A DNA stretch of 23,553 nucleotides, from contig JAGGWO010000104.1 of the NCBI GenBank assembly GCA_021157485.1, forward strand, positions 1-23,553, in the 5' to 3' direction. Under the pieces are notes generated by a model. It made no database searches. It had not been told where the DNA came from and worked only from the letters and a program-made list of their open reading frames with translations. The position numbers and the translations under genes were made by a program. How positions within the stretch are numbered: position 1 is the first letter of the stretch; the number at the start of each line of letters is the position of its first letter. This DNA is from Sulfurimonas sp. GTDB taxonomy: Bacteria; Campylobacterota; Campylobacteria; Campylobacterales; Sulfurimonadaceae. Below, piece by piece: positions 1 to 22,020 of the stretch.

Positions 1-338
1 CAACTGCTGCATGTAGTGTGATAGATATTTTAAATGAGTATAAAGCGAGTGGTAAACTAGATGAGACTTTTGAGTATTTTGCTCAAAAGCAAGAAGAGTT
101 TTTTAGCTCAAACAGAAACCTCTTTACCCAAAAAGTTGGAATCGGAATGATGTGTGGACTACGTTGTAAAAATGCAGACACACTTACAAATATAATGAGT
201 AATGCTAAAGAAAATGGTGTTATGGTGCTTAAGGCTGGACGTAATACACTGCGTTTCTTGCCACCACTGACAATTACAAAAGAGGAAATCGATGAAGGCT
301 TTAAATCTCTTAGTGCTGCTGTCTCTACTCTTAAGTAG
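1..338 (+). CDS. argD: Acetylornithine/succinylornithine aminotransferase ArgD, C-terminal part (5' truncated by window)
   Basis: The reading frame is open from base 3 and ends at the TAG at 336-338, giving about 112 residues of the C-terminal domain. ArgD is a PLP-dependent class III aminotransferase of arginine synthesis that converts N-acetylglutamate semialdehyde to N-acetylornithine. The visible part fits the small domain of this family: an Ala-rich start (TAACSVIDIL), a mid-region GIGMMCGLRC strand, then the GVMVLKAGRNTLRFLPPLTI segment and the KEEIDEG helix typical of ArgD C-termini. The PLP lysine lies upstream of the window. Other class III aminotransferases such as GabT share this fold, but the RFLPPLTI end favours ArgD. 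Its last 47 bases overlap the next gene, in a different frame. Confidence 0.88.
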   Translation, partial: TAACSVIDILNEYKASGKLDETFEYFAQKQEEFFSSNRNLFTQKVGIGMMCGLRCKNADTLTNIMSNAKENGVMVLKAGRNTLRFLPPLTITKEEIDEGFKSLSAAVSTLK

Positions 339-2542: not shown

Positions 2543-2550
2543 AATAAGAA

Positions 2551-3285
2551 CTACTTTAAAATATATGCTATTTTAACTTTGAATAGTTCAGGAAAATCAA
2601 ATAGTGAGGAGTCTACTTCTATTGGAAAACTTCTCTCTATAGCTTGAATAGTCGCTTTTTTAAAGATACTTTTTCCTGAGATTATCTCAATATCTTCTAC
2701 AGTACCATCTGCTAATATTTTAAACTTAACATCAACAACTCCCTCAATACATCTTCTTCTAGCCATATTTGGATATGATTTATTACTGTTGATTCTTTTT
2801 ACAAGTTGTTCAACAAATTTTCTTTGTTTAGCTTCTCGTACATCTTGGTTTATTTGCTGTTGAACATTTGAGATATTTTCAGTTTGCACTACTTCTTGTT
2901 CTTGAACTTCTTCGACTATTTCCTCTTCAGAAACTTCTTCTATAATTGGCTCTTCAACAATGGGTTCTTGCTTAGCAACAGGCTCTTGAATAATTGGCTC
3001 TGGCTTGATAATAGGTTTTGGCTTTGGCTTTGGCTTTGGCTTTGGTGGTAGCTTTTTCTTTTTTTTCTTCTTAGGCTTTGGTTTTCTTTTTTTCTTTTTT
3101 TCTTTTATATTTTTTACTTCTTGTACTTTTGCCGGAGCAATAATAGAAAATTGTACACATTTTAGATTGTTTTTTTGAACTTTTTTTGTAGAGTAATCGT
3201 TTTTGCTAAAGAGATAAAACATAGTTGCAATTATTGCTATATAAGCGATAGCACTAATTATAAAAGAGGATAGATATCTATGCAT
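2551..3285 (-). CDS. tonB: TonB energy-transducing protein
   Basis: A 244-residue inner-membrane-anchored periplasmic protein that passes proton-motive energy from ExbB-ExbD to outer-membrane receptors. Residues 6-26 form a single N-terminal membrane helix. A strongly basic Lys/Pro stretch follows at 62-92, with KP dipeptide repeats at 82-91, then an acidic Glu/Pro/Val stretch at 94-135. This is the extended periplasm-spanning linker of TonB proteins. The C-terminal domain (about 155-244) carries the TonB signature: YPNMARRRCIEGVVDVKFKI followed by LADGTVEDIEIISGKSIF. It is the last gene of the ten-gene minus-strand block. Its start overlaps the end of the RND gene by 8 bases, which suggests translational coupling. 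A TonB at the end and a receptor plus ExbBD at the beginning imply one dedicated TonB system. Confidence 0.92.
   Translation of the reverse strand: MHRYLSSFIISAIAYIAIIATMFYLFSKNDYSTKKVQKNNLKCVQFSIIAPAKVQEVKNIKEKKKKRKPKPKKKKKKKLPPKPKPKPKPKPIIKPEPIIQEPVAKQEPIVEEPIIEEVSEEEIVEEVQEQEVVQTENISNVQQQINQDVREAKQRKFVEQLVKRINSNKSYPNMARRRCIEGVVDVKFKILADGTVEDIEIISGKSIFKKATIQAIERSFPIEVDSSLFDFPELFKVKIAYILK
2556..2576. terminator. AT-rich stem-loop at the convergent end of midA and tonB, possible weak bidirectional terminator
   Basis: TTAAAATA (2556-2563) and TATTTTAA (2569-2576) form a perfect 8-base inverted repeat with a 5-base loop. It lies in the last codons of tonB and just past the midA stop. The stem has no G-C pairs and no clean U-run follows on either strand, so termination is only a possibility. 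Confidence 0.25.
3020..3043. repeat. Hexanucleotide tandem repeat (GGCTTT x4) inside tonB
   Basis: Four perfect consecutive copies of GGCTTT on the plus strand encode the Pro-Lys dipeptide repeat of TonB on the minus strand (CCA-AAG codons). The unit is six bases, so changes in copy number would lengthen or shorten the linker without shifting the frame. Confidence 0.8.
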
Positions 3286-6200
3286 CTTTATAGCTTCTTA
3301 AAAAGTTGTACATTGTCGGTAGGTAGAATAGATTTAAAATCGTTCCCCAGAGTAGTCCAAAACCGATAGTTACAGCAAGTGGTTGAAAGGTAACTGCTTG
3401 TGCTGTAGCAAAGAATATTAGTGATGATAGACCTATAATAGTTGTAATGGATGTAAGCAAAATTGGTCTTAATCTTCTTTTTGCAAGTATTAAAATCTCA
3501 TCTTTAGATGTTGCACCCTTTAGTGTTGACATCATTATGATTCCATCATTAACGATAACACCGGCGAGCCCAAGTGCACCGATGAGAGATGGAAGGGAGA
3601 TATTAAGTCCCATTATGAAGTGACCTATATAAACGCCAAGAAGAGAAAAAGGGATAACTGACATAACTATAATAGTTTCTCTAAAAGAGTTAAAAAGATA
3701 AAGAATAGAGATAAAAATAAGAATAATAGCTAGGATAGAAGCTAAAACCATCTCCGTCTGCATAGTTCTTTTCTGCTTTCTTTCTCCCTTAAACTTCAGT
3801 TTAATTCCTTTTACTGCATTTAATTCATCTATGATTGGCGATATCTTCTCTAGTACTTCTGTAGCAGTTACTATTGATGGATTTACATTTGCAAATACAT
3901 AAAAATTAGTTTCACCATTATCTTTAACCAGTCTCTCTAAAGATTCCACTTTTTCAAACTCACAAATATCTTTTAGCTTTACGAGCATATTATTTTTAAT
4001 AGGAATCTCTAGTCTTTTAAAGCTCTCTAAATCATTTTGGATATTAAATGATTTCACCTTTATATCTAAGAGCTCATTGCCATCAAAAATAGTCCCAACT
4101 TTTCTTGATAGATAGAGACCAGATATATAGTTACCAAGATACTTTTCAGTAATTCCTAACTCTTCACCGTAACTGTTTAGTTTTAGTTTTATCTCATCTG
4201 GTCCTACTTTAACATTGTCACCATAGTACTTTATTCCCTCGATTTTTGAAAAACCATCTTCAATCGCTCTAATAGCTTTTATCGCTTTTTGGTAATCATT
4301 ACTAATCACACCAATTCGAATATCAGCTTTTGTATGGCCCATTTTATTTTCAACAACCATTAGGTTACTAAGTTCAAACTTCTTTTTATAAGCTTGTTCT
4401 TTAAGCCAGACTCTAAGCTCTTTTGAGATTTCTTGTGAAGATTTTTCTCTTATTCTATCTGTAGAATCATAATAAAAACTTAGATATGGAGTAATGAACT
4501 TATCTACAAAGTTTGACTCTTTCATCTTATGTAACTCGATGGAGATATATCCAACATAAGGGTACATTTCAGCAGAGCCCGTTGCACTTCTTCTGTAGCC
4601 TGCCGTAGAGCTTACATGTTTAACAGAGAATCTGTCTCTATTTTTTAAGATATCTTTTTCTAAAGTTTGTACAATTTTTAGAGATTCTTCAAGAGTTGTT
4701 GTGGGCTGTGCTTTGAATGTAATGTTTATTGATGAAGCATCAAAGGACTTGAACATCTGAAACTTCGAACTCTTTACACCATAAAAAATTAAAACAGGAA
4801 CGATGATTAAAAAAGTGAGTAAGAAGCTCTTTTGATATTTAACTAACTGTCTTAAAGCCTTTGAGTAGAGTATATTTGCTTTTTCCCATGATAGAGTTCT
4901 AGAGTTCGCGGAAAGTGTATGTGAAGCATGTATAGGTAAAAATATAAATGACTCTATAAGAGAAGCCACTACAAGAGCAGAAAATGCAATAGGAATCAGT
5001 TGTATAATCTCTCCAAGTCTACCACTAAGCATAAGCAGAGGTATAAAAGAGAATAGGGTAGTCAGTGAAGCAATAGTAACTGGTTTTGCTACCTCTTTTG
5101 TACCTAATAATGCTGCCTCTTTGGCACTGTAGCCTTTTTCAATATACTGCTGAATATTCTCACTTACAACAATAGCATCATCAACAATAATACCAATTGC
5201 AATCAGTACACCTATTAGGGAATTTACATTTATACTGTAGCCTGTGAAATAGAAATATATTGCTCCGATGACAAAAGAGGTAGGTATTCCCAAGGCTATG
5301 ATAAAAGCTATACGAACATTAATTAAAATAGCTGTTAGAAGTGTGATGAGAATTACACCGAGTAAAATGTTTGAAATGACAATATTGAGTCTATCTTTTA
5401 TGATAGTTGACTTATCCATTCTAACACTAAAGTTAACACCATCAATATTCATCTTTGATATAAGGGAGTTAATATCTTCAGCGATAGTTACTGCGTCACC
5501 ATTTGGATTTTGTGATACAGCGAGAGTGATAGAGTTGTTCCCATTCATACTCGCAAGTGTTGCCGAGTCCTCGTAGCGTTTTTCTATTTTTGCGATATCT
5601 TTTAAGGCGATTTGCTGGTCATTAATATTGACAATAGTATTTTCAAGGTTATCGGCAAATTTTTTATCATTATGAGTAGAGATATAGTATTGTTCTTTGA
5701 TATTATCTATTTTTCCCAGTGGAAATATATAGGACAATTCAGAAAACATTCGCAGTGTTTCCTCTAAAGATAGATTATAAGCATTTACCTTTTTTTCATC
5801 TATAAGAACTTCATAAAAAAGGTCAGAATCTCCAAAGATAGTAACATCTGATACATCTTTTATAGAGAGAAGTTTGCTTTTAAATTTTTTAGAGAGAGCT
5901 TTTAGCTTTGCTCTAGGAACTTCATCTGAAAGAATTGATACATGCATTATACTTCTAGAGTGCGCAACTCCTCTTATTATAGGCTCATCCATATCACTTG
6001 GAAGGTTCTCTCTTATCAGAGCTAAGGCATCCTCTGTGTCACTTACAGCTACTGCTTTATCAGCCCCTTTTTCCAGTTCGAGAATTATTGTAAATCTACC
6101 TGGTGATATTACAGATGTAACAGTCTCTACTCCAACAATAGTCTTTACTTCATCTTCTATTTCTTGGACAGCCATTTTATTCAAAGAATCTACCGAAGCA

Positions 6201-6364
6201 CCGGCATATGAGCCTCGAATTGTTAAAGAGTTAGGCTCAATAGTTGGAGATATCTCTTTTGGAATTTGAGTGTAAGAATATATACCCATTGCGAATAGTA
6301 GTAAAAATAGAGTATAGTTTATTTTATAATTATCAATAAAAAATCTTAAAAAATTTTCAAACAT
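3278..6364 (-). CDS. RND-superfamily efflux transporter (AcrB/HAE/HME-like inner membrane pump)
   Basis: A 1028-residue protein with the duplicated RND layout. TM1 is at about 15-33, a large periplasmic loop follows (about 35-325), TM2-6 lie at about 325-480, TM7 at about 512-530, a second loop at about 535-865, and TM8-12 at about 868-1022. The proton-relay pair is present in TM4 (D395-D396 in GIIVDDAIVV), and TM10 has the matching GVIVNDGIIM (N939, D940). The RRLRPILLTSITTIIG motif at 963-978 is typical. The family exports drugs, metals or other compounds from the periplasm or inner membrane, normally with a periplasmic adaptor and a TolC channel. No adaptor gene is present in this operon. 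It starts 10 bases after the activase gene, with AGGA upstream, and overlaps tonB by 8 bases. The substrate is unknown. Confidence 0.9.
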   Translation of the reverse strand: MFENFLRFFIDNYKINYTLFLLLFAMGIYSYTQIPKEISPTIEPNSLTIRGSYAGASVDSLNKMAVQEIEDEVKTIVGVETVTSVISPGRFTIILELEKGADKAVAVSDTEDALALIRENLPSDMDEPIIRGVAHSRSIMHVSILSDEVPRAKLKALSKKFKSKLLSIKDVSDVTIFGDSDLFYEVLIDEKKVNAYNLSLEETLRMFSELSYIFPLGKIDNIKEQYYISTHNDKKFADNLENTIVNINDQQIALKDIAKIEKRYEDSATLASMNGNNSITLAVSQNPNGDAVTIAEDINSLISKMNIDGVNFSVRMDKSTIIKDRLNIVISNILLGVILITLLTAILINVRIAFIIALGIPTSFVIGAIYFYFTGYSINVNSLIGVLIAIGIIVDDAIVVSENIQQYIEKGYSAKEAALLGTKEVAKPVTIASLTTLFSFIPLLMLSGRLGEIIQLIPIAFSALVVASLIESFIFLPIHASHTLSANSRTLSWEKANILYSKALRQLVKYQKSFLLTFLIIVPVLIFYGVKSSKFQMFKSFDASSINITFKAQPTTTLEESLKIVQTLEKDILKNRDRFSVKHVSSTAGYRRSATGSAEMYPYVGYISIELHKMKESNFVDKFITPYLSFYYDSTDRIREKSSQEISKELRVWLKEQAYKKKFELSNLMVVENKMGHTKADIRIGVISNDYQKAIKAIRAIEDGFSKIEGIKYYGDNVKVGPDEIKLKLNSYGEELGITEKYLGNYISGLYLSRKVGTIFDGNELLDIKVKSFNIQNDLESFKRLEIPIKNNMLVKLKDICEFEKVESLERLVKDNGETNFYVFANVNPSIVTATEVLEKISPIIDELNAVKGIKLKFKGERKQKRTMQTEMVLASILAIILIFISILYLFNSFRETIIVMSVIPFSLLGVYIGHFIMGLNISLPSLIGALGLAGVIVNDGIIMMSTLKGATSKDEILILAKRRLRPILLTSITTIIGLSSLIFFATAQAVTFQPLAVTIGFGLLWGTILNLFYLPTMYNFLRSYKDA

Positions 6365-6374
6365 ATATCAGTTC

Positions 6375-7175
6375 CTAGTTTTCATATCCATAAGATTCAT
6401 TGGCTAAAATAGCCGCACCATATGCAGTCGTTATTTGAGGATATTTTGGTATAAATATCTCTTTAGATAGCTCATTCTCGATTGCATAAACCAAACCAGC
6501 GTTAAGAGCAGGTCCTCCATCAAAATAGATGCTATCTTTTATCCCAACTCTTTTTACAAGTTTTATAATTCTTTTTGCTATAGAGTAGTGAACTCCGGCA
6601 ACAATATCCTCAACACTATTGTCATTTCCCAAAAGCCCAATAATTTCTGATTCAGCAAAAACTGCACATGTGCTATTAATCGCTAAGGGAGCCCCTTCTG
6701 ATTTAAAGTGGTAGTCACCCAGTTCACTAACTTCAAGTTCTAAGTTCATAGCAACAACATCTAAAAATTTTCCAGTTCCAGCTGCACACCTGTCGTTCAT
6801 AGCGAAATTAACTACACTGCCTTCACTGTCAAGTGAGATTGCTTTAGAATCTTGACCACCAATATTAATGATAGTCTTAATGTCACATTCACCTTTAGCG
6901 GCGGCTACTGCACCAATGGCATTAGCTGTAATCTCACTAATGTTCTCATCAGCTTCTTTAAATAGTTTTCTTCCATAACCGGTTGCAACAGTATAGACAA
7001 CATCTTTTTCATCTATCTTTAACTCAATAAGTAATTCGCTAAGACTTTGCTTCGCATACTTATAAAACATACTTCCACTAGCACTTATCCTATGGCCAAT
7101 TAACTCTTCATTCTCATCTACAAGTGCAACTTTTATGGCAGTTGAACCGATGTCTATTCCTACAAAATATTTCAC
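6375..7175 (-). CDS. BcrAD/BadFG-type ATPase, activator/reductase of 2-hydroxyacyl-CoA dehydratase-like (double-cubane) protein
   Basis: A 266-residue ASKHA-fold ATPase (HgdC/YjiL type). Visible features are the phosphate-1 loop GIDIGSTAIKVAL at 6-18, INIGGQDSKAI at 103-113, C130 in NDRCAAGTGKF, C170 in NSTCAVFAESEIIG, and the adenosine loop YFDGGPALNAG at 217-227. In characterised activators the two Cys of each monomer hold one [4Fe-4S] cluster at the homodimer interface, and ATP hydrolysis drives single electrons onto the partner enzyme at very low potential. The start is GTG, overlapping the upstream partner gene's stop by 4 bases (GTGA), so the two are probably translationally coupled. 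By pairing, it is the dedicated reductase of the protein encoded at 7172-8452. Confidence 0.9.
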   Translation of the reverse strand: MKYFVGIDIGSTAIKVALVDENEELIGHRISASGSMFYKYAKQSLSELLIELKIDEKDVVYTVATGYGRKLFKEADENISEITANAIGAVAAAKGECDIKTIINIGGQDSKAISLDSEGSVVNFAMNDRCAAGTGKFLDVVAMNLELEVSELGDYHFKSEGAPLAINSTCAVFAESEIIGLLGNDNSVEDIVAGVHYSIAKRIIKLVKRVGIKDSIYFDGGPALNAGLVYAIENELSKEIFIPKYPQITTAYGAAILANESYGYEN

Positions 7176-8452
7176 TGTTTTTTTCTCCGTCTATTTTTAA
7201 GAGATTCGATAAATGCTTCGATTCTAGTTGTTAGCTGTCCTAAGTGACTTGGAGAGTAATCACTCTCTAAGTATATAATTGGAATACCTTCTTTTTCCAT
7301 AGCTTGAAGTACAGATCTCTGTTCCATCTCATAAACTTGGCATCCTGCAAAAGCTTGATAAACAACACCATCAGCTTTATACTCTTTAACTAAATCGATT
7401 ATTCGTCTGATTCTATCATTGTTTTTTGTAAAAATAGGGCAAGTACACCCTTTTAAATATCTATCTGCAACAGAATCAACCATATCATTAACAAACCACT
7501 CATCAACGCTTACCATATCGTTAAACATTCTGTTTGAAGAACATGTTTCATCTGCGACTATAATGGCATCTGAATCCTCTATTAAAAGAGGAATTTTTAG
7601 ATTTGGAAATATTGGAGGCGAACCAGTATATACAATTCTTGGACTCTTTTTGGTTGCTGTATTGAACTCATCTTCTACTCTCTGCGCACACTCTTTTAAT
7701 AGTTCTGAAGTAGCTTTAATCCAGTTATCTAAGTCATCAAAGAAGAAAGCATTTGTCACTAAAAACATATCTAAACCCAGTATAGGAGAGTTTTCATTTT
7801 TTCGTAGAATATTGAGTTTATGGTAAAGATGTTGAGCATATCCTACTTTTTTTATTGACTCTTTTAAATTCTTTTTTGTCAGTTTTTTACCTAGGTCAGT
7901 TGAGAGCTCTTTTGTGAATTTTCTAACACTTCTTCTCCAGTACTCACGACTCTCTGCACTCTCTTTTGTTCTTGGGAATTCCATATCAAAAAGCTTATAG
8001 CCCATCTCTTCGATTATAGCACCGGACTTTGCTTTTTGATCACATGTAGTTGGAGATATAACAAGGTCAGGTTTGTCAGAAAAGTTACCAGATACAAACT
8101 GTCCAACAGTTGCTTTTACAAGAGGACAAGCTTTAGAAGGTAGCAGATCACTTCCAATCTCATCATCAGTATAGAAACCATTACATAGTCTTAATGGAAC
8201 TGCGTCAAGTGCATGGATTATTTCAGATGGCACTTGAATACACATAGTACCTACCTTTACTTTATCAGCATGTAGAGATTCATGTCTGCAGTGTACTCTT
8301 TCATAAAGGTCATAAAAATAATTCATAGCCTTTGGAGGCTCTTTAAAGTCATGCTTTATCTTTTCTAATAGTGAAATAGCTTCCATCGCTTTATGACGGT
8401 TTTGTTTCTCTTTAGGAGTTTCTATTTTATGCTCTCTAACTCTTTTAGTCAT
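7172..8452 (-). CDS. 2-hydroxyacyl-CoA dehydratase D-component-like protein, probable double-cubane cluster protein (YjiM/DCCP type)
   Basis: A soluble cytoplasmic protein of 426 residues from the chosen ATG at 8452, which has GGGAG seven bases upstream. An ATG at 8470 would add six residues but lacks a good ribosome site. The family pattern is clear: C71-I-Q-VPSEIIHALDAVPLRLC (C90), KACPLVKATVG (C109), SPTTCDQKAK (C137), then in the second half ADETCSSNRMF (C304), RYLKGCTCPIF (C336/C338), AFAGCQVYEMEQ (C371) and the ending ESDYSPSHLGQLTTRIEAFIESL. Three Cys per half on a single chain, next to one activase gene and without a second dehydratase subunit, matches the double-cubane cluster proteins (DCCP) and E. 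coli YjiM rather than two-subunit acyl-CoA dehydratases. Characterised DCCP reduces small molecules such as acetylene, azide and hydrazine when driven by its ATPase; the natural substrate is unknown. Which Cys bind iron is my inference. Confidence 0.85.
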   Translation of the reverse strand: MTKRVREHKIETPKEKQNRHKAMEAISLLEKIKHDFKEPPKAMNYFYDLYERVHCRHESLHADKVKVGTMCIQVPSEIIHALDAVPLRLCNGFYTDDEIGSDLLPSKACPLVKATVGQFVSGNFSDKPDLVISPTTCDQKAKSGAIIEEMGYKLFDMEFPRTKESAESREYWRRSVRKFTKELSTDLGKKLTKKNLKESIKKVGYAQHLYHKLNILRKNENSPILGLDMFLVTNAFFFDDLDNWIKATSELLKECAQRVEDEFNTATKKSPRIVYTGSPPIFPNLKIPLLIEDSDAIIVADETCSSNRMFNDMVSVDEWFVNDMVDSVADRYLKGCTCPIFTKNNDRIRRIIDLVKEYKADGVVYQAFAGCQVYEMEQRSVLQAMEKEGIPIIYLESDYSPSHLGQLTTRIEAFIESLKNRRRKKQ

Positions 8453-9425
8453 CTTTTTTCTCCCAATCATCCATCTGCATTCTCTTTACAAAACCACCTT
8501 TTGTGGATGTGAAAACTGGCATATTTAAAATATCTACATGTAGAACATCATCTTCAGGACATGCTGCAACACATTTCATACATAAAATACAGTCATCTCT
8601 TAAAATATTAGTGCTTTGTACATCATCGGCTATATCTTTTATTTGCATGTCACAAACATTGTAACAGTCACCACATTTAGTACATTTATCGCCATCTTTT
8701 CTTAGTTTTATGAGTGCAGCGTCACTAAAAATATAGTGCATTGCACTCATTGGACAGAAGAAACAGAAAAATCTTTTTTTGACAAATGAACCAACGAAAA
8801 ATAGACCTGTGAACATAAGACCTAAAGTCGTCAGTACCATAGCACTTTTAGTGGAGAAGTCTAGACTCCACTGCGAAGTATCTCCGACAAAAAGAGGTGT
8901 TATCATCCTTCCTGGACATATCTCACAAAACGCAGTCCTCCACTCTCCACCAAGAATTCCTAAACCAACACCTATAGGTGCAAGTATTACAAGGGCGAGT
9001 AAGAGGTACTTAATCTTTTTAAGAGAGTTAAACTGAGGTTGCGTATAAGTGCTATAGTTGATACCCATTCTTTTTCTCAAACCTGTTATCCAGTCCTGCA
9101 TAGTCCCTAAAGGACATGCATAACCACACCAAGCTTTATTAAAAACTATAAACCATAGTAAAAAAGTTAGAAATCCAATAAGTACAGAGATACTTGCCGC
9201 ACTTAAAAGTACATCTAGTGGACGAGCGAGTTGGTGTTGTAGAGGAAGAAAGTAGCACATTCCTCCAACTTCTCTATCATACCCACATGAAAATACAGGA
9301 ATACTATTTCCTAGATTAATAGAAAAATATCCTCCATATACAAAAAGTATAAAAAAGAAGAGCTGTAACCAGAAGCGAAACTTACTGATATCTGCTCTGT
9401 TTATAAAGTCTCTAATCTTTTTCAT
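8445..9425 (-). CDS. NapH/NosH-like membrane polyferredoxin
   Basis: A 326-residue inner-membrane iron-sulfur protein. The chosen start is ATG at 9425; a TTG one codon upstream is possible. Four membrane helices lie at about 17-37, 75-96, 137-159 and 195-215. Three CxxxCP/CxxCP motifs sit near helix ends (CGYACP 100-105, CEICP 167-171, CFFCP 221-225). Two complete [4Fe-4S] ferredoxin motifs follow: C248, C251, C254, C258 and C279, C282, C285, C289. NapH, NosH and related proteins move electrons between the quinone pool or ferredoxin and partner proteins across the membrane. No periplasmic nitrate or nitrous oxide reductase gene is present, so this is a family member used in another pathway. 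It overlaps the 919-residue fusion gene upstream and the double-cubane protein gene downstream by a few bases each. Confidence 0.88.
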   Translation of the reverse strand: MKKIRDFINRADISKFRFWLQLFFFILFVYGGYFSINLGNSIPVFSCGYDREVGGMCYFLPLQHQLARPLDVLLSAASISVLIGFLTFLLWFIVFNKAWCGYACPLGTMQDWITGLRKRMGINYSTYTQPQFNSLKKIKYLLLALVILAPIGVGLGILGGEWRTAFCEICPGRMITPLFVGDTSQWSLDFSTKSAMVLTTLGLMFTGLFFVGSFVKKRFFCFFCPMSAMHYIFSDAALIKLRKDGDKCTKCGDCYNVCDMQIKDIADDVQSTNILRDDCILCMKCVAACPEDDVLHVDILNMPVFTSTKGGFVKRMQMDDWEKKDD

Positions 9426-12171
9426 CAAACCTTACCTCTTTAAATGGTTGTTGATTTCTTTTTCTATACCAATATATTGCAACTCCTGAGAGTAGCATAG
9501 TGATAATAGCCGCTAAAAGACCATAAGCGTAAGAACTGTAAGCACTATCATTAGGATAGTATACAGATGGATAAGTAGTTGTATGTTTTATTTTTTTGTA
9601 TGGTTCATAGAGATACTCTCCAGCACTGTTTTGTGTATATGTTGCCGTTAGCAAAAAATTGTTTTTATGTCTTCTGTCAAATTTATTCCACTCTGGAAAA
9701 TAATCTTTTAGAAGTACAAAAGTTGCAATTCCATCTTTATCAGTTTTAATTGTTTTTGACCAGCCTGTTTTTGTTGAGAGTGTTACACTTGCTCCCTCTA
9801 TAGGTTCAGAGTTTAAAATCGCTTTTATTCTTACTTTCTCACCAGCATATAGACGATGATAAAAAGTTTCACCTTTTTCTCTTACTCTCAATATATCAAA
9901 AGGTACTTCTTTAATGCTATGTGCTGACATGTTTTCATTATCATAAATAGCATCATTGCTATGGTTAAATCTCATATGCTCATATTTGGCAGTTGTCATA
10001 TAGAGTGTGTCATCTTGAATGTTACCATCTACATAATAAAGGTTATAGTATCCATTATCAGGCATCCTAAAACTAACAGTTTTACAATCTCTGCCTCTTG
10101 ATTGTTTGGCTTTAGTAACTTCTAAATTTGCATCAAGTAGAAATAGTTCTGAGCGTATATTACTAATACAGTTTAATCTTCCTGAGTTATTTATAAAGAC
10201 TGGCCATACTTTTTTAGATGGAATTTCTCCACGTGAGCCACCATGTATATGTCCACCGTGACCGCCTTTACCTCTTCTTGCTGCAGGATTTTTATCCGTA
10301 AAGTATACGATATCAGTAGCTGAAACCTCTTTAGCCATTCTTTTTGCCGGAGTATCAAAGTCTTTCATAGCAATTTTGAGTGCTTCATCAAAATTTAAAA
10401 CTTTACCTTTATTGCGTTTTGAGAATTTTATAGCATCTTTTTCATTGGTAAAAGCGTATTTGCTAACCTCACTCATTGTCGGTTTTTTCTTGCTTCCAAC
10501 AACATAAAATGCACTCTTGGCATCAATGAACTTTAGACTTTTAACATCAACAACTTTCAAATCACTGAGAGGCATTTTTTTAAGGTTTTTCTCTTCTGCC
10601 AAACAGTGAATAGAACAGTACTGTCTAGTCGTGTCATTGAGATGTGCAGCGTGATTTGTTTTGTAGAATTTTACGAGATTCATTCCACATACAATACATG
10701 ACCCTTTGTCTTTTCCTGACTGTAAAAGAGTAGCTTTGTCTTTTGAAACACTTTGGAACATCGCTCCAGCACCATGGCTTCCATGACCACCAGATGCTCT
10801 GCCATAAGTGTCTATAATATAACCTCTATACATATTAACGCTTAGAAAGAAGATAATTAAAGAAGCTGCAAAAGGGTAGGCAATAATTTTTCTCATCTTA
10901 TCAGCATCTAGAAGCTTCATTCTTTTGTATAAAATTATTAAAGCCCAAATAATTGCAACCCATTTTAGTAAGTCAAATATATGTAACCAGCTATCGCCCC
11001 TTTGCGCTAAAGATGTTACATCTATATCAAATCCAAAACCGTGACCAAAGCCTTCTACAATTTGTTTGTATCCTCTCATGAAAAATGTTTCAAGTGAGTG
11101 AGCGATAGAGCCTAATATAAAGAGTGGAGCATATGAGTAACCAAGGTTATAAAAGACGTCTTTAAAATTTTTGTTTAGTATTTTAGCTGCTATAAACATA
11201 CCAACTACAGCAGCAGAAACTGTAAATAATATAGCATAAAGAAACGCGAATAGTCCTATCGGGTCAATAGAACCAAAGCTGATGTATCCTTTAAAAAACT
11301 CAGCAGTTGTTGACCATATCATATCACCAGCAGCATTACTTCGCCCGATTCCATGGTGAAATGCCATTGTAATCGGAATAGAGGCTAAGATAAGAATATA
11401 TGCCCAAACTTCAGCTTTTAGAGTTTGAAATTTTGAAAACAGTGAAAAAGATGGTTTTTTGTATTTAAAACTTACAGCTTCACATGCACTACTACAGTCC
11501 ATACAAAGAGTACAGTCTGTCATAGAGTTTCTGCTATCAAATGTAAAAGGTTTTAAGTTGTATGGACAAGCGGTGGCACACTCAAATGTTTTACACTCAT
11601 TACAAGCACTTTTATATGTTCCAAGCCATGTAAATGATAGTTTAGAGTAAGCACGGGTAAGTGTTCCAATAGGGCAGATATATTTACAGTAACTCATATC
11701 TCTGTATACAAAATAGACTACAAATGAGATAAGTGTCATTACTGTAAAAAGAGTAGCTGTTCCAAGAGGTGTTCTATAGAGACCAGGGAACATATAGTAT
11801 ATTCCCCACCAACCAAGTACAAGTAAAAATAGACCTATATATCTGTTTTGCATCCACTTGGGCATTTTCTTTTGTAGACCATATTTTGTAATGTATTTCC
11901 CCATAAATCCGTGAGGGCATATCCCACAAAATATTCGTCCAAATGTTGGAAGAGTAACTACCATAAATAGAGACCAGAATATTCCCCAAAATAGCGCATA
12001 CGTGAAGGTGTTATCTTTACCGGTATGTGCGAAACCAAAGTATAGAGCATATAAAAATAGAGCTAAAACTACTATTTTTAGAGTTAGTAAAAATTTCTGA
12101 TTTTTAAATAAAAAACCCATAATTGGTTTTGAATATATATCATTATTGTCACGTTTTATAAAATTTACCAT
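9412..12171 (-). CDS. Multidomain membrane protein: NosR/CcoG-like polyferredoxin fused to NosL-like and DUF4198-like periplasmic domains
   Basis: A 919-residue fusion. Residues 25-155 hold several membrane helices with the NosR-type motif CGICP (82-86), then CKYICP (162-167). Two [4Fe-4S] motifs follow: C190, C193, C198, C202 and C220, C223, C226, C230. About five further helices occupy 254-446. The periplasmic part begins with a His-rich stretch (GGHGSHG, 461-467). Next is a NosL-like domain with SCIVCGMNL (C492, C495, M497) and YCSIHC (C519, C523), then a second His-rich loop (GGHGGHIHGG, 636-645). The Ig-like segment at about 770-845 has carboxypeptidase-regulatory/DUF4198 (NikM-like) character (PIEGASVTL, DKDGIATFVL). 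A C-terminal membrane helix lies at 882-901. NosL binds Cu(I) in nitrous oxide reductase maturation; here Cys, Met and His richness points to metal handling coupled to electron transfer. The exact fusion is not one I recognise by name. It has GGGA upstream of its ATG and lies 12 bases after the CcdA-like gene. Confidence 0.82.
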   Translation of the reverse strand: MVNFIKRDNNDIYSKPIMGFLFKNQKFLLTLKIVVLALFLYALYFGFAHTGKDNTFTYALFWGIFWSLFMVVTLPTFGRIFCGICPHGFMGKYITKYGLQKKMPKWMQNRYIGLFLLVLGWWGIYYMFPGLYRTPLGTATLFTVMTLISFVVYFVYRDMSYCKYICPIGTLTRAYSKLSFTWLGTYKSACNECKTFECATACPYNLKPFTFDSRNSMTDCTLCMDCSSACEAVSFKYKKPSFSLFSKFQTLKAEVWAYILILASIPITMAFHHGIGRSNAAGDMIWSTTAEFFKGYISFGSIDPIGLFAFLYAILFTVSAAVVGMFIAAKILNKNFKDVFYNLGYSYAPLFILGSIAHSLETFFMRGYKQIVEGFGHGFGFDIDVTSLAQRGDSWLHIFDLLKWVAIIWALIILYKRMKLLDADKMRKIIAYPFAASLIIFFLSVNMYRGYIIDTYGRASGGHGSHGAGAMFQSVSKDKATLLQSGKDKGSCIVCGMNLVKFYKTNHAAHLNDTTRQYCSIHCLAEEKNLKKMPLSDLKVVDVKSLKFIDAKSAFYVVGSKKKPTMSEVSKYAFTNEKDAIKFSKRNKGKVLNFDEALKIAMKDFDTPAKRMAKEVSATDIVYFTDKNPAARRGKGGHGGHIHGGSRGEIPSKKVWPVFINNSGRLNCISNIRSELFLLDANLEVTKAKQSRGRDCKTVSFRMPDNGYYNLYYVDGNIQDDTLYMTTAKYEHMRFNHSNDAIYDNENMSAHSIKEVPFDILRVREKGETFYHRLYAGEKVRIKAILNSEPIEGASVTLSTKTGWSKTIKTDKDGIATFVLLKDYFPEWNKFDRRHKNNFLLTATYTQNSAGEYLYEPYKKIKHTTTYPSVYYPNDSAYSSYAYGLLAAIITMLLSGVAIYWYRKRNQQPFKEVRFDEKD

Positions 12172-12183
12172 TGTTTCCCTTTT

Positions 12184-12843
12184 TTAAAGTACCAAAATAC
12201 CGTTTAAAACTAATACACCTACAACTATCAGAAGAAGTGCTGCTACTCTCTCTATCCAAAGTTTGTAGGATGAAAACTCAGAGATTAAGCCTCTGATCAC
12301 TTTTGAGACTATGAAGCCGTAAAATATAATTGAAAATATAACTGCCCCTAATCCAAAGAATATTCCTACCCCTATTGCATGATAGATAGTGCTACTATTT
12401 ACAGCTACTGCTAGCAGTGCTAATATGGGAGCACAAGGATTGATTGACATTGTTGCACCAATAGTAAAAAAACCAAGTTTATTGAGTTTTGGTTTCTTTA
12501 ATAGTGATGTTGGTTGAGAACATGAACTTGCCGGTTTATAACTTTTGTATAGTAGATATAACCCCATACTAATAGTACTAACTCCAAGAATAACACTGAA
12601 TAGAGTGTTGTCATCAAGTATCTGCTTTACCCATGCTGAACTTAAAAATGCAATAGCAGCTAAAAATGTATAACTAAAGATTCTTCCTAAACTAAAAGGC
12701 AATATAATTCCAAGAGCTTCTTTTGTACTGTTTGAATTACTGATAAGCAGAGGACTTAAAAATGGCATACATGAGAACATACATGCTGTTGCTCCATAAG
12801 AGAGTCCGATTATAAAGATTGAAGTAAAAACTGTAAATTCCAT
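12184..12843 (-). CDS. CcdA/DsbD-like thiol-transport membrane protein
   Basis: A 219-residue protein with about six membrane helices. It carries the paired-cysteine layout of the DsbD membrane domain/CcdA family: C21 and C25 in the first helix (GATACMFSCMPFLSPLL) and C137 in SINPCAPILALL of the fourth. These proteins carry reducing equivalents from cytoplasmic thioredoxin to periplasmic thiol proteins, or in related branches support metal export or cytochrome assembly. A Lys-rich cytoplasmic loop joins the halves (about 113-122). It sits 12 bases from both neighbours in the TonB block. A natural partner would be the Cys pairs of the NosL-like domain in the next gene, which is inference. A TauE/SafE-type exporter is the main alternative. 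Confidence 0.78.
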   Translation of the reverse strand: MEFTVFTSIFIIGLSYGATACMFSCMPFLSPLLISNSNSTKEALGIILPFSLGRIFSYTFLAAIAFLSSAWVKQILDDNTLFSVILGVSTISMGLYLLYKSYKPASSCSQPTSLLKKPKLNKLGFFTIGATMSINPCAPILALLAVAVNSSTIYHAIGVGIFFGLGAVIFSIIFYGFIVSKVIRGLISEFSSYKLWIERVAALLLIVVGVLVLNGILVL

Positions 12844-12855
12844 ACTAACTTCTTC

Positions 12856-13239
12856 TTATGAGTCTTTTTTCGTGATGATTCCAAGATTTTTGAAATCTTT
12901 CTCTTTTAAAATATCTAGGAGAATAACAAAGGTATCAAACTTTGCTTCTTTATCACAGTTGATATGAACAGGCATATTCGCTTTATATTTTGAAAGTGCT
13001 ACTTCTAAATCTTTTTCTAAAATAGTTTCTTTGTCAAATAGAATCTCGCCATTAGCTTTTATAGTTATAGTAAGATTCTTTTGATTATCCTGCTTTGCTG
13101 CACTCTCTGATTTTGGAAGATCAACAGGAATAATCCCCTTAGCCACAAAGGTCGCTGTGATTAGAACTATCACTAGAAGTACGAGCATAATATCTATAAA
13201 GGGAACTACATTTATAGTGTCAAATTTTTTAATTTGCAT
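12856..13239 (-). CDS. exbD: ExbD biopolymer transport protein
   Basis: A 127-residue protein with one N-terminal membrane helix (about 11-33) holding the essential aspartate D16 in the NVVPFIDIMLVLLVIVLITATF context. A short periplasmic domain follows with the family segments VDLPKSES and LTITIKANGEILFD. ExbD dimers sit inside the ExbB pentamer and use proton flow to energise TonB. Its ATG overlaps the end of exbB by 11 bases, typical of coupled exbB-exbD. TolR is related, but the receptor next door and TonB at the end of the block favour ExbD. Confidence 0.9.
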   Translation of the reverse strand: MQIKKFDTINVVPFIDIMLVLLVIVLITATFVAKGIIPVDLPKSESAAKQDNQKNLTITIKANGEILFDKETILEKDLEVALSKYKANMPVHINCDKEAKFDTFVILLDILKEKDFKNLGIITKKDS

Positions 13240-13675
13240 TATTCATCTTCTTTTGTGCTATATCCCAATGTGCTAGAAGGACTTCTATCTTTCTAGCTAG
13301 GTGGTTATAGAAGACGATAGAAGGAATAGCGACAATCAGACCCATAGCAGTTGCCTTTAGAGCAAGTGCCAAAGATGTCATAATCATTTTAGCATCAAGA
13401 TCTGCGGACTGTCCCATAGAGTAAAAAGTGATAATAATCCCAAAGACAGTTCCAAGAAGCCCTATATATGGAGCATTGGAACCAAAGGTTGAGATGATGT
13501 TGATGTTATTTGTAAGAGCAATTTCAAGCTCCTCTTTTGTCTCAAAAGTTTTTACATCTACTCCTCTATAAAATAGAATTCGTTCAATCCAAAACCAAAA
13601 GGCCATGAAACTCATAACTCCAAGAAGTCCAATAACACCGTAGTCAACAATATCTTTTATTAGTTCTATGTTCAT
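13229..13675 (-). CDS. exbB: ExbB proton channel protein
   Basis: A 148-residue MotA/TolQ/ExbB-family protein with three membrane helices (about 12-36, 68-88 and 101-124). The conserved stretch GSNAPYIGLLGTVFGIIITF precedes ALALKATAMGLIVAIPSIVFYN, the pore-lining region of the family. This is the short ExbB form found in Campylobacterota, well below the about 240 residues of the E. coli protein. It lies 18 bases after the receptor gene, with AGGT upstream of its ATG, and forms the proton-driven motor with ExbD and TonB encoded in the same block. Confidence 0.9.
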   Translation of the reverse strand: MNIELIKDIVDYGVIGLLGVMSFMAFWFWIERILFYRGVDVKTFETKEELEIALTNNINIISTFGSNAPYIGLLGTVFGIIITFYSMGQSADLDAKMIMTSLALALKATAMGLIVAIPSIVFYNHLARKIEVLLAHWDIAQKKMNNAN

Positions 13676-13693
13676 ATTTTTACCTACTTATTA

Positions 13694-15841
13694 TTAGAAT
13701 TTAGCAGACAGTCCAGCTAAGAATGTTCTCCCAGGATTAACTGTTAAACCCATATCTCTTATATCATATAAATCATCTCCGTTTCTGTCACCAGTAACAC
13801 GAGGCATCATATAGTACTGCTCATCAAAAACATTTTCAACTTTACCAAACATCTCTATATCAAAACTTGCTAGTGTTACGTTATATTTAGCTCTTAAATT
13901 AACAACTGCATAACCATCGACTTTTACTTCATTTAACTCATCTGCATATTGAGAAGACCTGTAGTTTATATCAGCTGTTAATAATACACTAGGTATTATC
14001 TTATAATTACCCTCTAAATAAACAGTATGCTTTGATGTTCTTGGAATAGTATTTCCAGTGAGGTCATGTGTACTAGTTGTATTATTTAGTACTAATTTAT
14101 ACTCATTAAATCTTGTATATTTTGAGTCTAAGTATGTATAGTTAAATACAAATGATAAATCTTTCGATCTATCACTGTTTAATCCAAGTTCTAAACCTCT
14201 ATTTTGAATATCTGAATAATTTCCATATGTTATTGGAAATGCTGTTGTATTCGCATCAGCTGCATAATTACCACTATCTCTAGTAATTACATCATTTCTA
14301 TCAAGTTGAAAGATTGAAACTTCATATGATATTAAATCAGTCTGTTGTCTAAAACCTATTTCAAAATTAAGTGTTTTTTCAGTGTCTATATTAGAATTGT
14401 TAGCATATGTGGCTCTACTACTTGAACTAATATCACCCGCAAATAGTTGTGAAATTGTTGGAACTCTAAAGCCAGTTGAAACACTTGCAAATATTATTTG
14501 TTTAGCAGCAAGGTTATATGTTAAACCAGCTCTATATGAGTTTTCATTATATATTTTATCCCAATTATCTGAGTTCATATTGTTTTTATAATCATAACTA
14601 ATTTGATCATATCTTGCATTTAATGTAGCTACAAAATCTTTTGCTATTTGGTACTTAAACTCACCATAAATAGCATTTATATCCTCAGTAGAACTTGTAT
14701 CACTTACTAATTCACCTATTTGATGACTGCCATCAACAACTCTATATTTAGTATTTCTATCTTCTTCATTTCTTGCAATATCTAAACCAAGCATTCCAGC
14801 TACTACTTGTCCACCAAGTCTATATTCTGATTTTAAACCTACTTGATCTGTATTAGCGTAAGCATCATATTTATGGTCATCCCTTGGATCGCCACGAACG
14901 CCACTAGTTGCAAAAGCACTAGTTCTATTTTTTGTTATATCTTCATATTTATATACTTGAGCCATTAAGTTTGAATCATTTTCAAAATCTTTTGAGTAAG
15001 TTAAAAATAGTTTTGTTAAGTCAATATCATAGTTAGTTGAATATCCAACTTCACCTTTACTCGTTGGATTTGTTTCAACATTGTTGGTATATACTCCTGA
15101 ACTTTGTGTGGAATGGGTAATAGAACCAGTGTCATTCTCAAATCTAAGAGTTTTATCAGCACCAAGTGTAATATCACTACTATCATCTATATAGTATTGA
15201 AACTTACCATTAATTGATTTAGTGTAATAATCAGAATCTTCCCAATACCCATCAGCTGCTTTATAACTTGCTTGGATATTCGCTGCAAAATTTTCTGTAC
15301 CCATGTTGTATGAAGCTAAATACTTTTGGTATCCATAACTACCTTGTTCTGTAGCAACAAAACCTTGATTTTTATTTTTAGGTCTTTTTGTTGTAATGAT
15401 AATAGCACCTGCTAAAGCATCATTACCATATAGATAAGATGCACCACCCTTTAAAACTTTAATAGACTCTATATTATCAACATCAATATTTACAGCACCA
15501 GCTCTCTCTTGTACAGGTACACCATCAATAACTATGGCAACACCAGGCTGTTCACCCATATACATCTCAGTAGCCACACCCCTGATATGTATCTTGTTTG
15601 AATCACCTTCATTTTTTCTAACTGTTACACCGGGAAGTGTATTTAAAACATCAGCAATATTTTCTGCATGAAACTCTTCCACTTCAGCTCCACTCATAGT
15701 TGCTGTACTAGATATTTCAGTTGCTTTATTAGCAAATTTATCATCAATAGTAGATGACTCAACCTGTATCGTTCCTAAATCTGATGCTGCTGCATTTATG
15801 GCTAATGCACAGATTACAGACAGATAGATGTTCTTTTTCAT
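13694..15841 (-). CDS. TonB-dependent outer membrane receptor
   Basis: A 715-residue outer-membrane protein. It has a signal peptide (KKNIYLSVICALAINAAA, cleavage near residue 20) followed directly by a probable Ton box, DLGTIQVESS (21-30). The plug domain (about 40-155) shows VLNTLPGVTVRK, VVIDGVPVQERAG, IESIKVLKGGASYLYGNDALAGAIIITTKRP. A 22-strand barrel is suggested by alternating aromatic strands, with STGFRVPTISQLF and the C-terminal ENVFDEQYY and a terminal Phe for barrel assembly. Receptors of this class import ferric siderophores, cobalamin, haem or other metal complexes. The sequence has no feature that names the ligand, and I see no lipoprotein or ABC transporter partner here. A GGGA site precedes the ATG. 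It is the first gene of the probable ten-gene operon, so its upstream region (15842-15975) should carry the operon's regulation. Confidence 0.93.
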   Translation of the reverse strand: MKKNIYLSVICALAINAAASDLGTIQVESSTIDDKFANKATEISSTATMSGAEVEEFHAENIADVLNTLPGVTVRKNEGDSNKIHIRGVATEMYMGEQPGVAIVIDGVPVQERAGAVNIDVDNIESIKVLKGGASYLYGNDALAGAIIITTKRPKNKNQGFVATEQGSYGYQKYLASYNMGTENFAANIQASYKAADGYWEDSDYYTKSINGKFQYYIDDSSDITLGADKTLRFENDTGSITHSTQSSGVYTNNVETNPTSKGEVGYSTNYDIDLTKLFLTYSKDFENDSNLMAQVYKYEDITKNRTSAFATSGVRGDPRDDHKYDAYANTDQVGLKSEYRLGGQVVAGMLGLDIARNEEDRNTKYRVVDGSHQIGELVSDTSSTEDINAIYGEFKYQIAKDFVATLNARYDQISYDYKNNMNSDNWDKIYNENSYRAGLTYNLAAKQIIFASVSTGFRVPTISQLFAGDISSSSRATYANNSNIDTEKTLNFEIGFRQQTDLISYEVSIFQLDRNDVITRDSGNYAADANTTAFPITYGNYSDIQNRGLELGLNSDRSKDLSFVFNYTYLDSKYTRFNEYKLVLNNTTSTHDLTGNTIPRTSKHTVYLEGNYKIIPSVLLTADINYRSSQYADELNEVKVDGYAVVNLRAKYNVTLASFDIEMFGKVENVFDEQYYMMPRVTGDRNGDDLYDIRDMGLTVNPGRTFLAGLSAKF

Positions 15842-15851
15842 TATAGTTCCC

Positions 15852-15885
15852 TTATTATTTTAAATTCTAATATGAAGTATAATAA
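15852..15885 (-). promoter_or_regulatory. Candidate promoter/operator of the TonB block: TTATTAT-N20-ATAATAA inverted repeat with overlapping -10
   Basis: TTATTAT (15852-15858) and ATAATAA (15879-15885) are perfect inverted half-sites, 11 bases upstream of the receptor ATG. On the minus strand a -10-like TATACT (complement of 15876-15881) lies within the repeat. A repressor bound here could block the promoter. AT-rich inverted half-sites of this type are used by Fur and NikR regulators in Campylobacterota, but spacing and sequence do not match a consensus I can assert, and the region is AT-rich enough for chance. Confidence 0.3.
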
Positions 15886-15968
15886 GAAAGTGTTACATTT
15901 ATGTTAATTTTATAGATTAAGAAAAATTTTATATTTGTTTGTGGAGTTTTGTGAAGTGAGAGGGTTTA

Positions 15969-15987
15969 GAAAGGCTTAGAGCCCTTC
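15969..15987 (-). terminator. Weak stem-loop overlapping the pilT stop codon
   Basis: On the minus strand GAAGGGCT and AGCCTTTC pair over eight positions with one mismatch around a 3-base loop, spanning the pilT stop. No U-run follows, so it may only attenuate read-through into the receptor gene. Confidence 0.25.
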
Positions 15988-20766: not shown

Positions 20767-20772
20767 TATAAT
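20767..20772 (+). promoter_or_regulatory. -10 element for the NosL-like operon
   Basis: A perfect TATAAT lies 34 bases upstream of the preferred start at 20807 in the 74-base gap after the HD gene. No good -35 is seen at 17 bases. Confidence 0.45.
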
Positions 20773-20806
20773 GTCAAAAATTGTCATAATTTTCTGGAGT
20801 CAGGTA

Positions 20807-21313
20807 ATGTTGAAAAAATTACTACCTTTTTTTATTGTTGGAATGCTTATATCTATAATAGTTGTTATATTTATGTCTTTGGCCAAAAATCAGAATATGA
20901 CTGTAATACATGAAGGTAATCTTGATAGGTTACCAATCGATATGCAACTAAATAAATACCAAGATAGTGACTGTGGCATGGTTATAGAAGATTTAGAGTA
21001 TGCTTCTCAAGTAGTGTCGAGTGATGGTAAAACATGGTTTTTTCATGATCATGGCGGTTTTATTCATTGGTTAAAAGATAAAAGTTTTAAAGATGATGTT
21101 GTTATTTGGGTGATGGCTAAAGATACTCATAAGTGGATAAACGCAAAGAATGCTTACTACTCCTTAACAGATAAGACACCAATGGGTTATGGTTTTGGTG
21201 CTTATGAGAATAAATCTGATAATATGGTAGATTTTGATACAATGAGTCTTAAAATGTTAAGAGGAGAGACTATGAATAATCCTCAAATAAGAAAACAGTT
21301 ACTAGGTAAATAG
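20807..21313 (+). CDS. NosL-like membrane-anchored protein
   Basis: A 168-residue protein anchored by one N-terminal membrane helix (about 7-25) with a periplasmic domain. It contains a reduced NosL motif, DSDCGMVIED (C56, M58), followed by a His segment WFFHDHGGFIHWL (H80, H82) and GYGFGAYENK. NosL proteins bind Cu(I) through Cys and Met and deliver it to nitrous oxide reductase, while relatives occur next to other copper enzymes. The start at 20807 is chosen over an in-frame ATG at 20771 because GGAG (20796-20799) lies seven bases upstream and the upstream ATG overlaps the -10 TATAAT. It shares one base with the next gene (TAGTG), suggesting coupling to the membrane protein. No nosZ gene is in the window. 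Confidence 0.72.
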   Translation: MLKKLLPFFIVGMLISIIVVIFMSLAKNQNMTVIHEGNLDRLPIDMQLNKYQDSDCGMVIEDLEYASQVVSSDGKTWFFHDHGGFIHWLKDKSFKDDVVIWVMAKDTHKWINAKNAYYSLTDKTPMGYGFGAYENKSDNMVDFDTMSLKMLRGETMNNPQIRKQLLGK

Positions 21314-22020
21314 TGGAAACAGTAAATATTTTAACAATTATCTCTATTGCATTTCTTGGCTCTTTTGGTCACTGTATTGGTATGTGTGGTGGTATTGTTG
21401 TTGCGTATTCAACTATAAAAATTGACCCTAAAAGTTCAAAAGTTTCTCAAAGTATTGCACATCTTCTTTACTCTTTTGGAAGAGTCCTCACGTACACTGT
21501 TTTAGGTGCTATATTTGGAACTCTTGGTGGAGTGGCTCTTTTTAGTAACAATGCTAATGGTGGACTTCTTATCTTTGCAGGTATAGTTATGATACTTGCC
21601 GGATTATCACTCATGGGTAAGATTAAATTTTTAACGCTGATTGAGCACTCTTTTTCCTCTTCACCTCTTTATAAAAATGCTTTTAAAGCTGTTTTAAACT
21701 CAAAATCAAACCTTAGTTTTTTTGTTCTTGGTATGTTAAATGGATTACTGCCTTGTGGGTTTGTTTACTTCTTTGCTATTACAGCAGCAAGTACAGCAGA
21801 TCCTTTTTATGGGGCTTTAGTGATGTTTATTTTTGGAATCAGTACGATTCCAGCAATGTTTGGTGTTGGATTTTTATCTTCACTTGCATCTGCTACAAGC
21901 TTTAGAAATATGATGATGAGCCTCTCTTCTGTTGCCGTAATTCTTTACGGCGCCTTTACTATCTATAATGGTTATGAGTATATTTCAAATCCTCAAAAAA
22001 CCCTTAGAGATTGTCATTAA
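21313..22020 (+). CDS. TauE/SafE or DsbD_2 family membrane protein
   Basis: A 235-residue polytopic protein with about six membrane helices. The family motif GHCIGMCGGIVVAY is at 19-32 (C21, C25) and NGLLPCGFVYFF (C148) opens the second half, giving the inverted-repeat Cys pattern of the DsbD_2 family. Members are annotated as heavy-metal or sulfite exporters and are often found near copper and cytochrome oxidase assembly genes. The start is GTG at 21313, sharing one base with the NosL-like stop. The pairing with a NosL-like protein suggests metal (copper) handling at the membrane, which is inference from context. Confidence 0.8.
   Translation: METVNILTIISIAFLGSFGHCIGMCGGIVVAYSTIKIDPKSSKVSQSIAHLLYSFGRVLTYTVLGAIFGTLGGVALFSNNANGGLLIFAGIVMILAGLSLMGKIKFLTLIEHSFSSSPLYKNAFKAVLNSKSNLSFFVLGMLNGLLPCGFVYFFAITAASTADPFYGALVMFIFGISTIPAMFGVGFLSSLASATSFRNMMMSLSSVAVILYGAFTIYNGYEYISNPQKTLRDCH

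What the first reader, a model, noticed from the sequence alone, without database searches (positions are those of the whole stretch)
2551..15841. Ten-gene block joining a complete TonB import system to a membrane polyferredoxin chain and an ATP-driven double-cubane reductase
Seen: receptor, ExbB, ExbD, CcdA-like protein, polyferredoxin/NosL fusion, NapH-like polyferredoxin, double-cubane-type protein, its activase, RND pump and TonB lie on one strand with gaps of 18 bases or less and five overlaps. Known: TonB systems import metal complexes or other scarce ligands; activase/DCCP pairs perform very low-potential reductions. Inference: the operon imports a compound and reduces it, or reductively releases a metal from it, using electrons supplied at the membrane, with the RND pump returning a product or ligand. 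I know of no described pathway with this composition.
Basis: partly seen in the sequence, partly recalled or inferred. Interest (0 to 1): 0.88.

Follow-up and report, generated by a model that had tools for sequence, protein, structure and literature searches.

The report
Copper-import operon with ATP-driven reductase
This ten-gene operon from a Campylobacterota bacterium most likely imports copper and reduces it, and it unusually joins the importer to an ATP-powered, nitrogenase-like reductase whose natural job is unknown.

Summary
The ten-gene block is real, at the stated coordinates, and conserved. A distinct subfamily of double-cubane protein (DCCP) travels with the receptor, CcdA-like protein, polyferredoxin, NapH-like protein and activase across Campylobacterota. 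A direct-repeat promoter element (TTAACA-N5-TTAACA) precedes the receptor in 47 of 53 related operons. Genome-wide (94 of 179 Campylobacterales genomes; reversed-pattern control 5 hits) it precedes copper genes above all: of 112 distinct fetched sites, 28 OprC-type copper receptors, 17 NosL, 4 PCuAC, 1 MbnP. The 919-aa central protein carries a NosL domain with its copper ligands and a DUF4198/Zcp-type metal-binding fold. So this is most likely a copper-acquisition operon (about 0.8). Two simpler operon types with the same element lack DCCP, so DCCP and activase are an add-on, probably supplying ATP-boosted, low-potential electrons; the direction of that flow is unproven. New variant of a known kind; I found no description of it in nine literature searches of open papers.

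The parts
15876..15907 (-). promoter element: direct repeat TTAACA-N5-GTAACA and -10-like TATACT; 34 bases between it and the receptor ATG
   Evidence: exact match to the derived pattern; counterpart in 47 of 53 upstream regions, window included
13694..15841 (-). TonB-dependent outer-membrane receptor (715 aa)
   Evidence: Plug + beta-barrel; no TIGR01778 copper-receptor match at E<=1e-3; only Cys is C11; nearest solved PqqU/YncD, weak
13229..13675 (-). ExbB (148 aa)
   Evidence: TIGR02805 over cut-off
12856..13239 (-). ExbD (127 aa)
   Evidence: PF02472
12184..12843 (-). CcdA/DsbD_2-like membrane thiol-electron carrier (219 aa)
   Evidence: PF13386; C21, C25, C108, C137 invariant in 47 sequences
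9412..12171 (-). 919-aa fusion (PFD): membrane polyferredoxin core (1-~470), NosL domain (~488-596), DUF4198/Zcp-like domain (~650-870), C-terminal TM helix
8445..9428 (-). NapH-like membrane ferredoxin (327 aa, TTG start), 16 Cys invariant in 50 sequences
7172..8470 (-). double-cubane cluster protein, module subfamily (432 aa)
   Evidence: seven Cys shared with ordinary DCCPs, C61 and C342 its own
6375..7175 (-). ATP-dependent activase of DCCP (266 aa)
   Evidence: TIGR00241 over cut-off; C130, C170 invariant in 44 sequences
3278..6364 (-). RND transporter, closer to drug/organic pumps than to CusA
   Evidence: present in only some relatives
2551..3285 (-). TonB (244 aa)
   Evidence: PF03544
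20741..20772 (+). second copy of the promoter element, one mismatch, before the genes 20771-22772
20771..21313 (+). 180-aa protein with a C-G-M motif, NosL-like by eye only
   Evidence: no Pfam or NCBIfam match
21313..22020 (+). second DsbD_2 protein, probably in one operon with 20771
   Evidence: PF13386

Best explanation
A copper-acquisition operon belonging to a Campylobacterota copper regulon. Shown by sequence: operon structure, conservation, an operator shared with copper genes, Fe-S and metal-binding domains. Inferred: an OmpR-type response regulator controls the operon (whether copper lack or excess is the signal is not known); the receptor, driven by TonB-ExbBD, brings a copper complex into the periplasm; there it meets the DUF4198/Zcp-like and NosL domains of the 919-aa protein; electrons cross the membrane through its polyferredoxin core and the NapH-like protein, and as thiols through CcdA, and reduce Cu(II) or its ligand, releasing Cu(I) to NosL and on to cuproenzymes; DCCP and its activase use ATP to give the cytosolic Fe-S clusters electrons of very low potential, so that copper can be stripped from chelates which an ordinary reductant could not reduce; RND, where present, exports the emptied ligand.
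For: Operator: 47 of 53 receptor upstream regions reach >=10/12 (25 of 28 operons with DCCP, 22 of 25 without); TTAAC-N5-7-TTAAC in 14 of 28 and 14 of 25 against 0.1-0.2 expected. Regulon: 94 of 179 genomes, reversed control 5 hits. Of 112 distinct fetched sites the first gene is an OprC-type receptor in 28 (28 of 28 match TIGR01778, all below its cut-off where I saw scores; CxxxM and HxM, the OprC copper motif named in PMC7558416, are invariant), NosL in 17 (17 of 17 match PF05573), PCuAC in 4 (one tested), MbnP in 1. By coordinates 22 sites, 21 of them not fetched, lie just before a NosL match. Own genome: near-operators before a NosL gene (Pfam) and a second NosL-like gene (by eye). NosL ligands C495, M497, M566 kept in 25 of 25 comparable sequences. 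Fold matches to Zcp with Zn, Co or Cu and to Ni-bound DUF4198. Twelve Cys, H87, H273, H358 invariant in every PFD sequence that covers them. Precedent: the polyferredoxin CcoG reduces Cu(II), not Fe(III) (PMC7558416 passage). NapH and DCCP subfamilies co-occur; in L096 the polyferredoxin core is gone but DUF4198, NapH and DCCP remain.
Against: The receptor is not of the OprC family and its ligand is unknown. Cu(II) is usually easy to reduce, so copper alone does not explain DCCP. Of 112 sites 33 have a first gene with no evident copper link (some look like chance, e.g. a ribosome recycling factor), 9 have no called ORF, 9 a regulator, 6 DsbD_2, 5 TonB/ExbB. Five of 14 module genomes have no NosZ match. 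DUF4198 proteins elsewhere bind Ni or sit in iron-reduction clusters (passages). NosL is missing from 29 of 45 DUF4198-bearing fusions. The His/Met-rich linker is variable; 4 of 49 rows have neither. The model is modest (pLDDT 73, pTM 0.45; residues 176-250 under 50). At two mismatches the own-genome scan gives 26 sites against 14 in the control.
Confidence: 0.5

Rival explanations
1. Copper import as above, but DCCP works the other way: it takes electrons from NapH and, with ATP, reduces or cleaves the imported copper ligand (a chalkophore-like organic molecule) in the cytosol.
Against: No inner-membrane importer for a ligand is in the operon; NapH is DCCP's constant partner, and in L096 each DUF4198 unit has its own NapH while DCCP is single.
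Confidence: 0.22
2. Iron: reductive release of Fe(III) from a siderophore in the periplasm, like PepSY-DUF4198-TonB clusters.
For: Fe(III)-catecholates need a very low potential (recalled); DUF4198 sits in iron-reduction clusters (passages); the receptor scores best against the siderophore-receptor model, below its cut-off.
Against: A crude 19-bp Fur-box scan found nothing better than shuffles in 53 upstream regions (lowest p 0.115); the shared operator precedes copper genes; NosL domain.
Confidence: 0.13
3. Copper-stress or sulfide-related envelope defence, with RND as efflux, rather than acquisition.
For: A response regulator gene followed by OMF, MFP and RND genes carries the same operator in L131/L101, L133/L102 and L146/L104.
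Against: The regulon is led by import receptors and chaperones; this RND is not CusA-like and is missing from many relatives.
Confidence: 0.08

Closest known systems
NosA/OprC TonB copper receptors
   Same: TonB-dependent copper uptake; OprC-type genes share the operator in these genomes
   Different: this receptor is of another subfamily without CxxxM; I recall no redox chain with OprC
CcoG/FixG polyferredoxin cupric reductase
   Same: membrane polyferredoxin with two [4Fe-4S] clusters and a periplasmic C-terminal domain (passages)
   Different: no CcoG model among the NCBIfam matches; extra TM region, NosL and DUF4198 domains; sits with a receptor
PepSY-DUF2271-DUF4198 flavinylated clusters, some with TonB (PMC8238504)
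   Same: transmembrane electrons and DUF4198 for periplasmic metal reduction (passages)
   Different: Fe-S instead of flavin; copper regulon; ATP-driven DCCP
Double-cubane cluster protein with its reductase (7yyl, 6eno)
   Same: same family, seven Cys kept, activase partner
   Different: extra C61 and C342; comes with NapH and a receptor, whereas 11 of 11 fetched ordinary Campylobacterales DCCPs (of 21 found) stand as a DCCP-activase pair without the other window genes
Pseudomonas FpvGHJK/PvdRT siderophore reduction and recycling (recalled)
   Same: periplasmic reduction, then ligand export
   Different: metal and components differ

Membership tests
Double-cubane cluster proteins (NF040772) | whole-protein score over 350 bits | tested here: not met
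   346.5 bits
Double-cubane cluster proteins (NF040772) | cluster-binding cysteines and activase partner | tested here: met
   seven Cys shared with ordinary DCCPs; activase adjacent; that these Cys are the ligands is recalled
Double-cubane cluster proteins (NF040772) | [8Fe-9S] cluster, ATP-dependent reduction | not testable with these tools
   needs purified protein
NosA/OprC copper receptors (TIGR01778) | model match and CxxxM-HxM copper motif | tested here: not met
   no match at E<=1e-3; only Cys is C11
NosL copper chaperones (PF05573) | domain and Cu(I) ligands | tested here: met
   60.6 bits over 24; C495, M497, M566 in 25 of 25; that these are the ligands is recalled
CcoG cupric reductases | match to the CcoG model | tested here: not met
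   not among NCBIfam matches at E<=1e-3
DUF4198 (PF10670) | Pfam match | tested here: inconclusive
   no match for the window PFD at E<=1e-3; precomputed for many homologues; fold match to 9gcb, E 5.9e-5
Copper regulon defined here | TTAACA direct repeat + -10 box upstream | tested here: met
   exact match at 15876-15907
CusA heavy-metal RND (TIGR00914) | score over 701 bits | tested here: not met
   252.6 bits; NF033617 scores 401.9, also below its cut-off

The most novel reading that the evidence does not exclude
An ATP-powered, nitrogenase-like electron source working outward: DCCP and its activase charge a NapH/polyferredoxin wire that reduces copper chelates in the periplasm. It would be the first physiological role for a double-cubane protein and the first ATP-driven reductive step in metal acquisition that I know of.
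Probability: 0.33. Interest if true: 0.92.

Novelty: new variant of a known kind. Interest (0 to 1): 0.78.

Why it matters
DCCPs are structurally known but, as far as I recall, have no known natural job. Here one is tied to a membrane chain and to a nutrient, copper, so the question becomes directly testable. The work also exposes a Campylobacterota copper regulon with a recognisable operator, in organisms many of which need copper for N2O reduction and cbb3 oxidases while living in sulfide, where copper is scarce (habitat statement recalled).

Tried and rejected
Fur box: best 19-bp matches no better than shuffles in 53 upstream regions. NosZ as only destination: 9 of 14 module genomes have a NosZ match (71 of 179 overall), so not required. 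Nitrogenase link: 3 of 14 have NifH. Sulfur uptake by TonB receptors (Sulfurovum indicum paper, outline and passages): names no such operon in what I saw; its supplements could not be read. His/Met-rich linker as a copper signature: too variable. Receptor likeness to PqqU: weak, not used. Terminator-like sites: 8 against 5.5 expected over 2400-16200, not informative. Nine literature searches (open PMC papers only) showed no description of this operon; I saw listings, and passages of PMC10045233 (plus outline), PMC12537917, PMC8238504, PMC11870441, PMC8267372, PMC7558416 and PMC9449129 only.

Full report
What is there. The window is contig C141 of an assembly of 1.79 Mb in 249 contigs, 80% complete. 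Ten minus-strand genes from 15841 to 2551 encode, in order, a TonB-dependent receptor, ExbB, ExbD, a CcdA/DsbD_2-like protein, a 919-aa polyferredoxin fusion (PFD), a NapH-like protein, a double-cubane protein (DCCP), its activase, an RND transporter and TonB. Junctions are four gaps of 10-18 bases and five overlaps of 4-26 bases. The DCCP is nearest to the solved DCCP (7yyl, 6eno) and misses the curated NCBIfam cut-off by 3.5 bits.

The fusion protein. Among 92 PFD sequences from fetched loci (88 unique, because four G contigs repeat named ones) there are four lengths: core ~475 aa, core+NosL ~610, core+DUF4198 ~775, core+NosL+DUF4198 ~915 (sorted by length, so pieces cut by a contig end are sorted too: at least L017 and L077). 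Twelve Cys, H87, H273 and H358 are invariant wherever covered. The AlphaFold model (pLDDT 73, pTM 0.45, Fe-S region poor) matches Zcp with zinc, cobalt or copper and a Ni-bound DUF4198 protein, and NosL with E about 1e-3; which part of the model matches which is my reading from aligned lengths and sequence. Charged loops fit cytosolic Fe-S motifs and periplasmic metal domains (inference).

Conservation. One scan of named genomes found 128 places that encode a relative; the best 80 were kept. Among unique loci, a DUF4198-length PFD is followed by NapH in 45 of 45 and by DCCP in 43 of 45; the two misses end within 0.5 kb. With core or core+NosL length, 0 of 43 have NapH or DCCP, though 13 of the 43 contigs end within 3 kb downstream; one (L039) has an activase fragment and looks decayed. 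A receptor precedes 39 of 45 and 40 of 43; of the 9 misses 6 are near contig ends, while L050 and L053 have a receptor further down and L054 has none. In 179 Campylobacterales genomes 14 have a module-type DCCP (59-100% identical) and 21 a distant one (30-33%). I fetched the 13 others of the 14, and 11 of the 21. The module type lies in the block each time, except that a truncated contig (L107) lacks the upstream part and L096 lacks the polyferredoxin core; the distant type is a DCCP-activase pair without the other window genes in 11 of 11. The module-type NapH (50-100%) is in 13 genomes, all among those 14. Receptors 67-73% identical to this one occur in operons with core-length PFD. In L052 a receptor-core-TonB operon sits between the same neighbours (pilT side, methyltransferase/TolC side) as the window operon; in L063 likewise with four extra genes between.

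The operator. Upstream words showed a strong direct repeat. Scored as TTAACA-N5-TTAACA, 47 of 53 upstream regions reach at least 10 of 12, usually 55-90 nt before the mechanically called receptor start, both with DCCP (25 of 28) and without (22 of 25). With a -10 box added, the exact pattern is in 94 of 179 genomes; read backwards it gives 5 hits. I took 110 loci: 30 returned and 80. I left out sites already explained by coordinates (22 before a NosL match, one of which, in G037, fell into a fetched locus all the same; about 10 before receptor-PFD operons), a few more, and those beyond the listing. The 110 loci hold 112 distinct sites. First genes: 28 OprC-type receptors (28 of 28 match TIGR01778, with invariant C96-x3-M100 and H294-x-M296), 17 NosL (17 of 17 PF05573), 9 response regulators, 9 none called, 6 DsbD_2, 4 PCuAC, 4 FtsX, 4 ExbB, 4 DUF4405, 27 others, among them one MbnP and one TonB. 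A ccoN gene is called after a DsbD_2 gene in L187. In G102 an operator also lies between activase and ExbB, by coordinates. In the window's own genome two mismatches give 26 sites against 14 in the control, so only the best count: the exact one here; one-mismatch sites before a NosL gene (C1) and before 20771 in this window; and a two-mismatch site before a NosL-like gene, by eye, on the contig that holds the NosZ fragment. The two other one-mismatch sites (C153, C165) have no recognisable copper gene.

Simpler operons. Five genomes with a distant NapH (33-38%) carry NapH followed by CcdA, without DCCP or PFD core. In four a receptor of the window's family precedes them and has the repeat upstream; the fifth contig is truncated. 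A small periplasmic protein lies between receptor and NapH in three, and a piece of one before NapH in the truncated locus; Pfam sees DUF4198 in one of two tested, below cut-off. One (L249) continues with ExbB, ExbD and TonB. L096 has two receptor-DUF4198-NapH units and a single DCCP-activase-CcdA. So the chain exists without DCCP, and DCCP's constant partner is NapH: 46 of 47 loci with DCCP, duplicates included, the miss being the truncated L107.

Mechanism. Copper acquisition is the best-supported reading (about 0.8). CcoG, a polyferredoxin, reduces Cu(II) but not Fe(III) in vitro (review passage), which gives a working precedent. That DCCP and activase push low-potential electrons outward through NapH is inference; the main alternative is reduction of the imported ligand. 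Some Cu(II)-nitrogen chelates have potentials well below NADH (recalled), which would give DCCP a purpose.

Names. L099 is probably Nitrosophilus alvini because contig lengths agree (1,807,889). S. denitrificans is known here only as the named source of one PFD protein.

Noticed in passing
window 20741-22772 (+): A second operator copy (one mismatch) heads a small operon (C-G-M protein, DsbD_2, DUF4395), probably also copper-related.
   Followed up: partly
window 292-1506 (+): TolC-like gene convergent to the operon; in L024, L052, L063 and L076 it lies near an adaptor-like (HlyD-type by eye) gene, so RND may find its partners there.
   Followed up: partly
L006, L029, L035, L045, L050, L053 and others: OmpR-type response regulator and often sensor kinase genes lie near these operons; 9 regulator genes carry the operator themselves.
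   Followed up: partly
L115, L117, L204, L205, L124: FtsX and ABC, DUF4405 and PepSY-like genes also follow the operator: possible unknown members of the regulon.
   Followed up: no
L195 and L223: A related TPR-like protein follows an operator in a same-genus genome and a one-mismatch operator (C165) in the window's genome.
   Followed up: no
L096 16206-17312 (-): PFD without the whole Fe-S core but with its N-terminal 45 residues and the DUF4198 part.
   Followed up: yes
L024 167-4710 (+): Core PFD followed directly by the RND gene beside the same methyltransferase/TolC neighbours as in the window.
   Followed up: no
L042: The operon on a contig binned as Petrimonas (Bacteroidota): binning error or transfer.
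   Followed up: no
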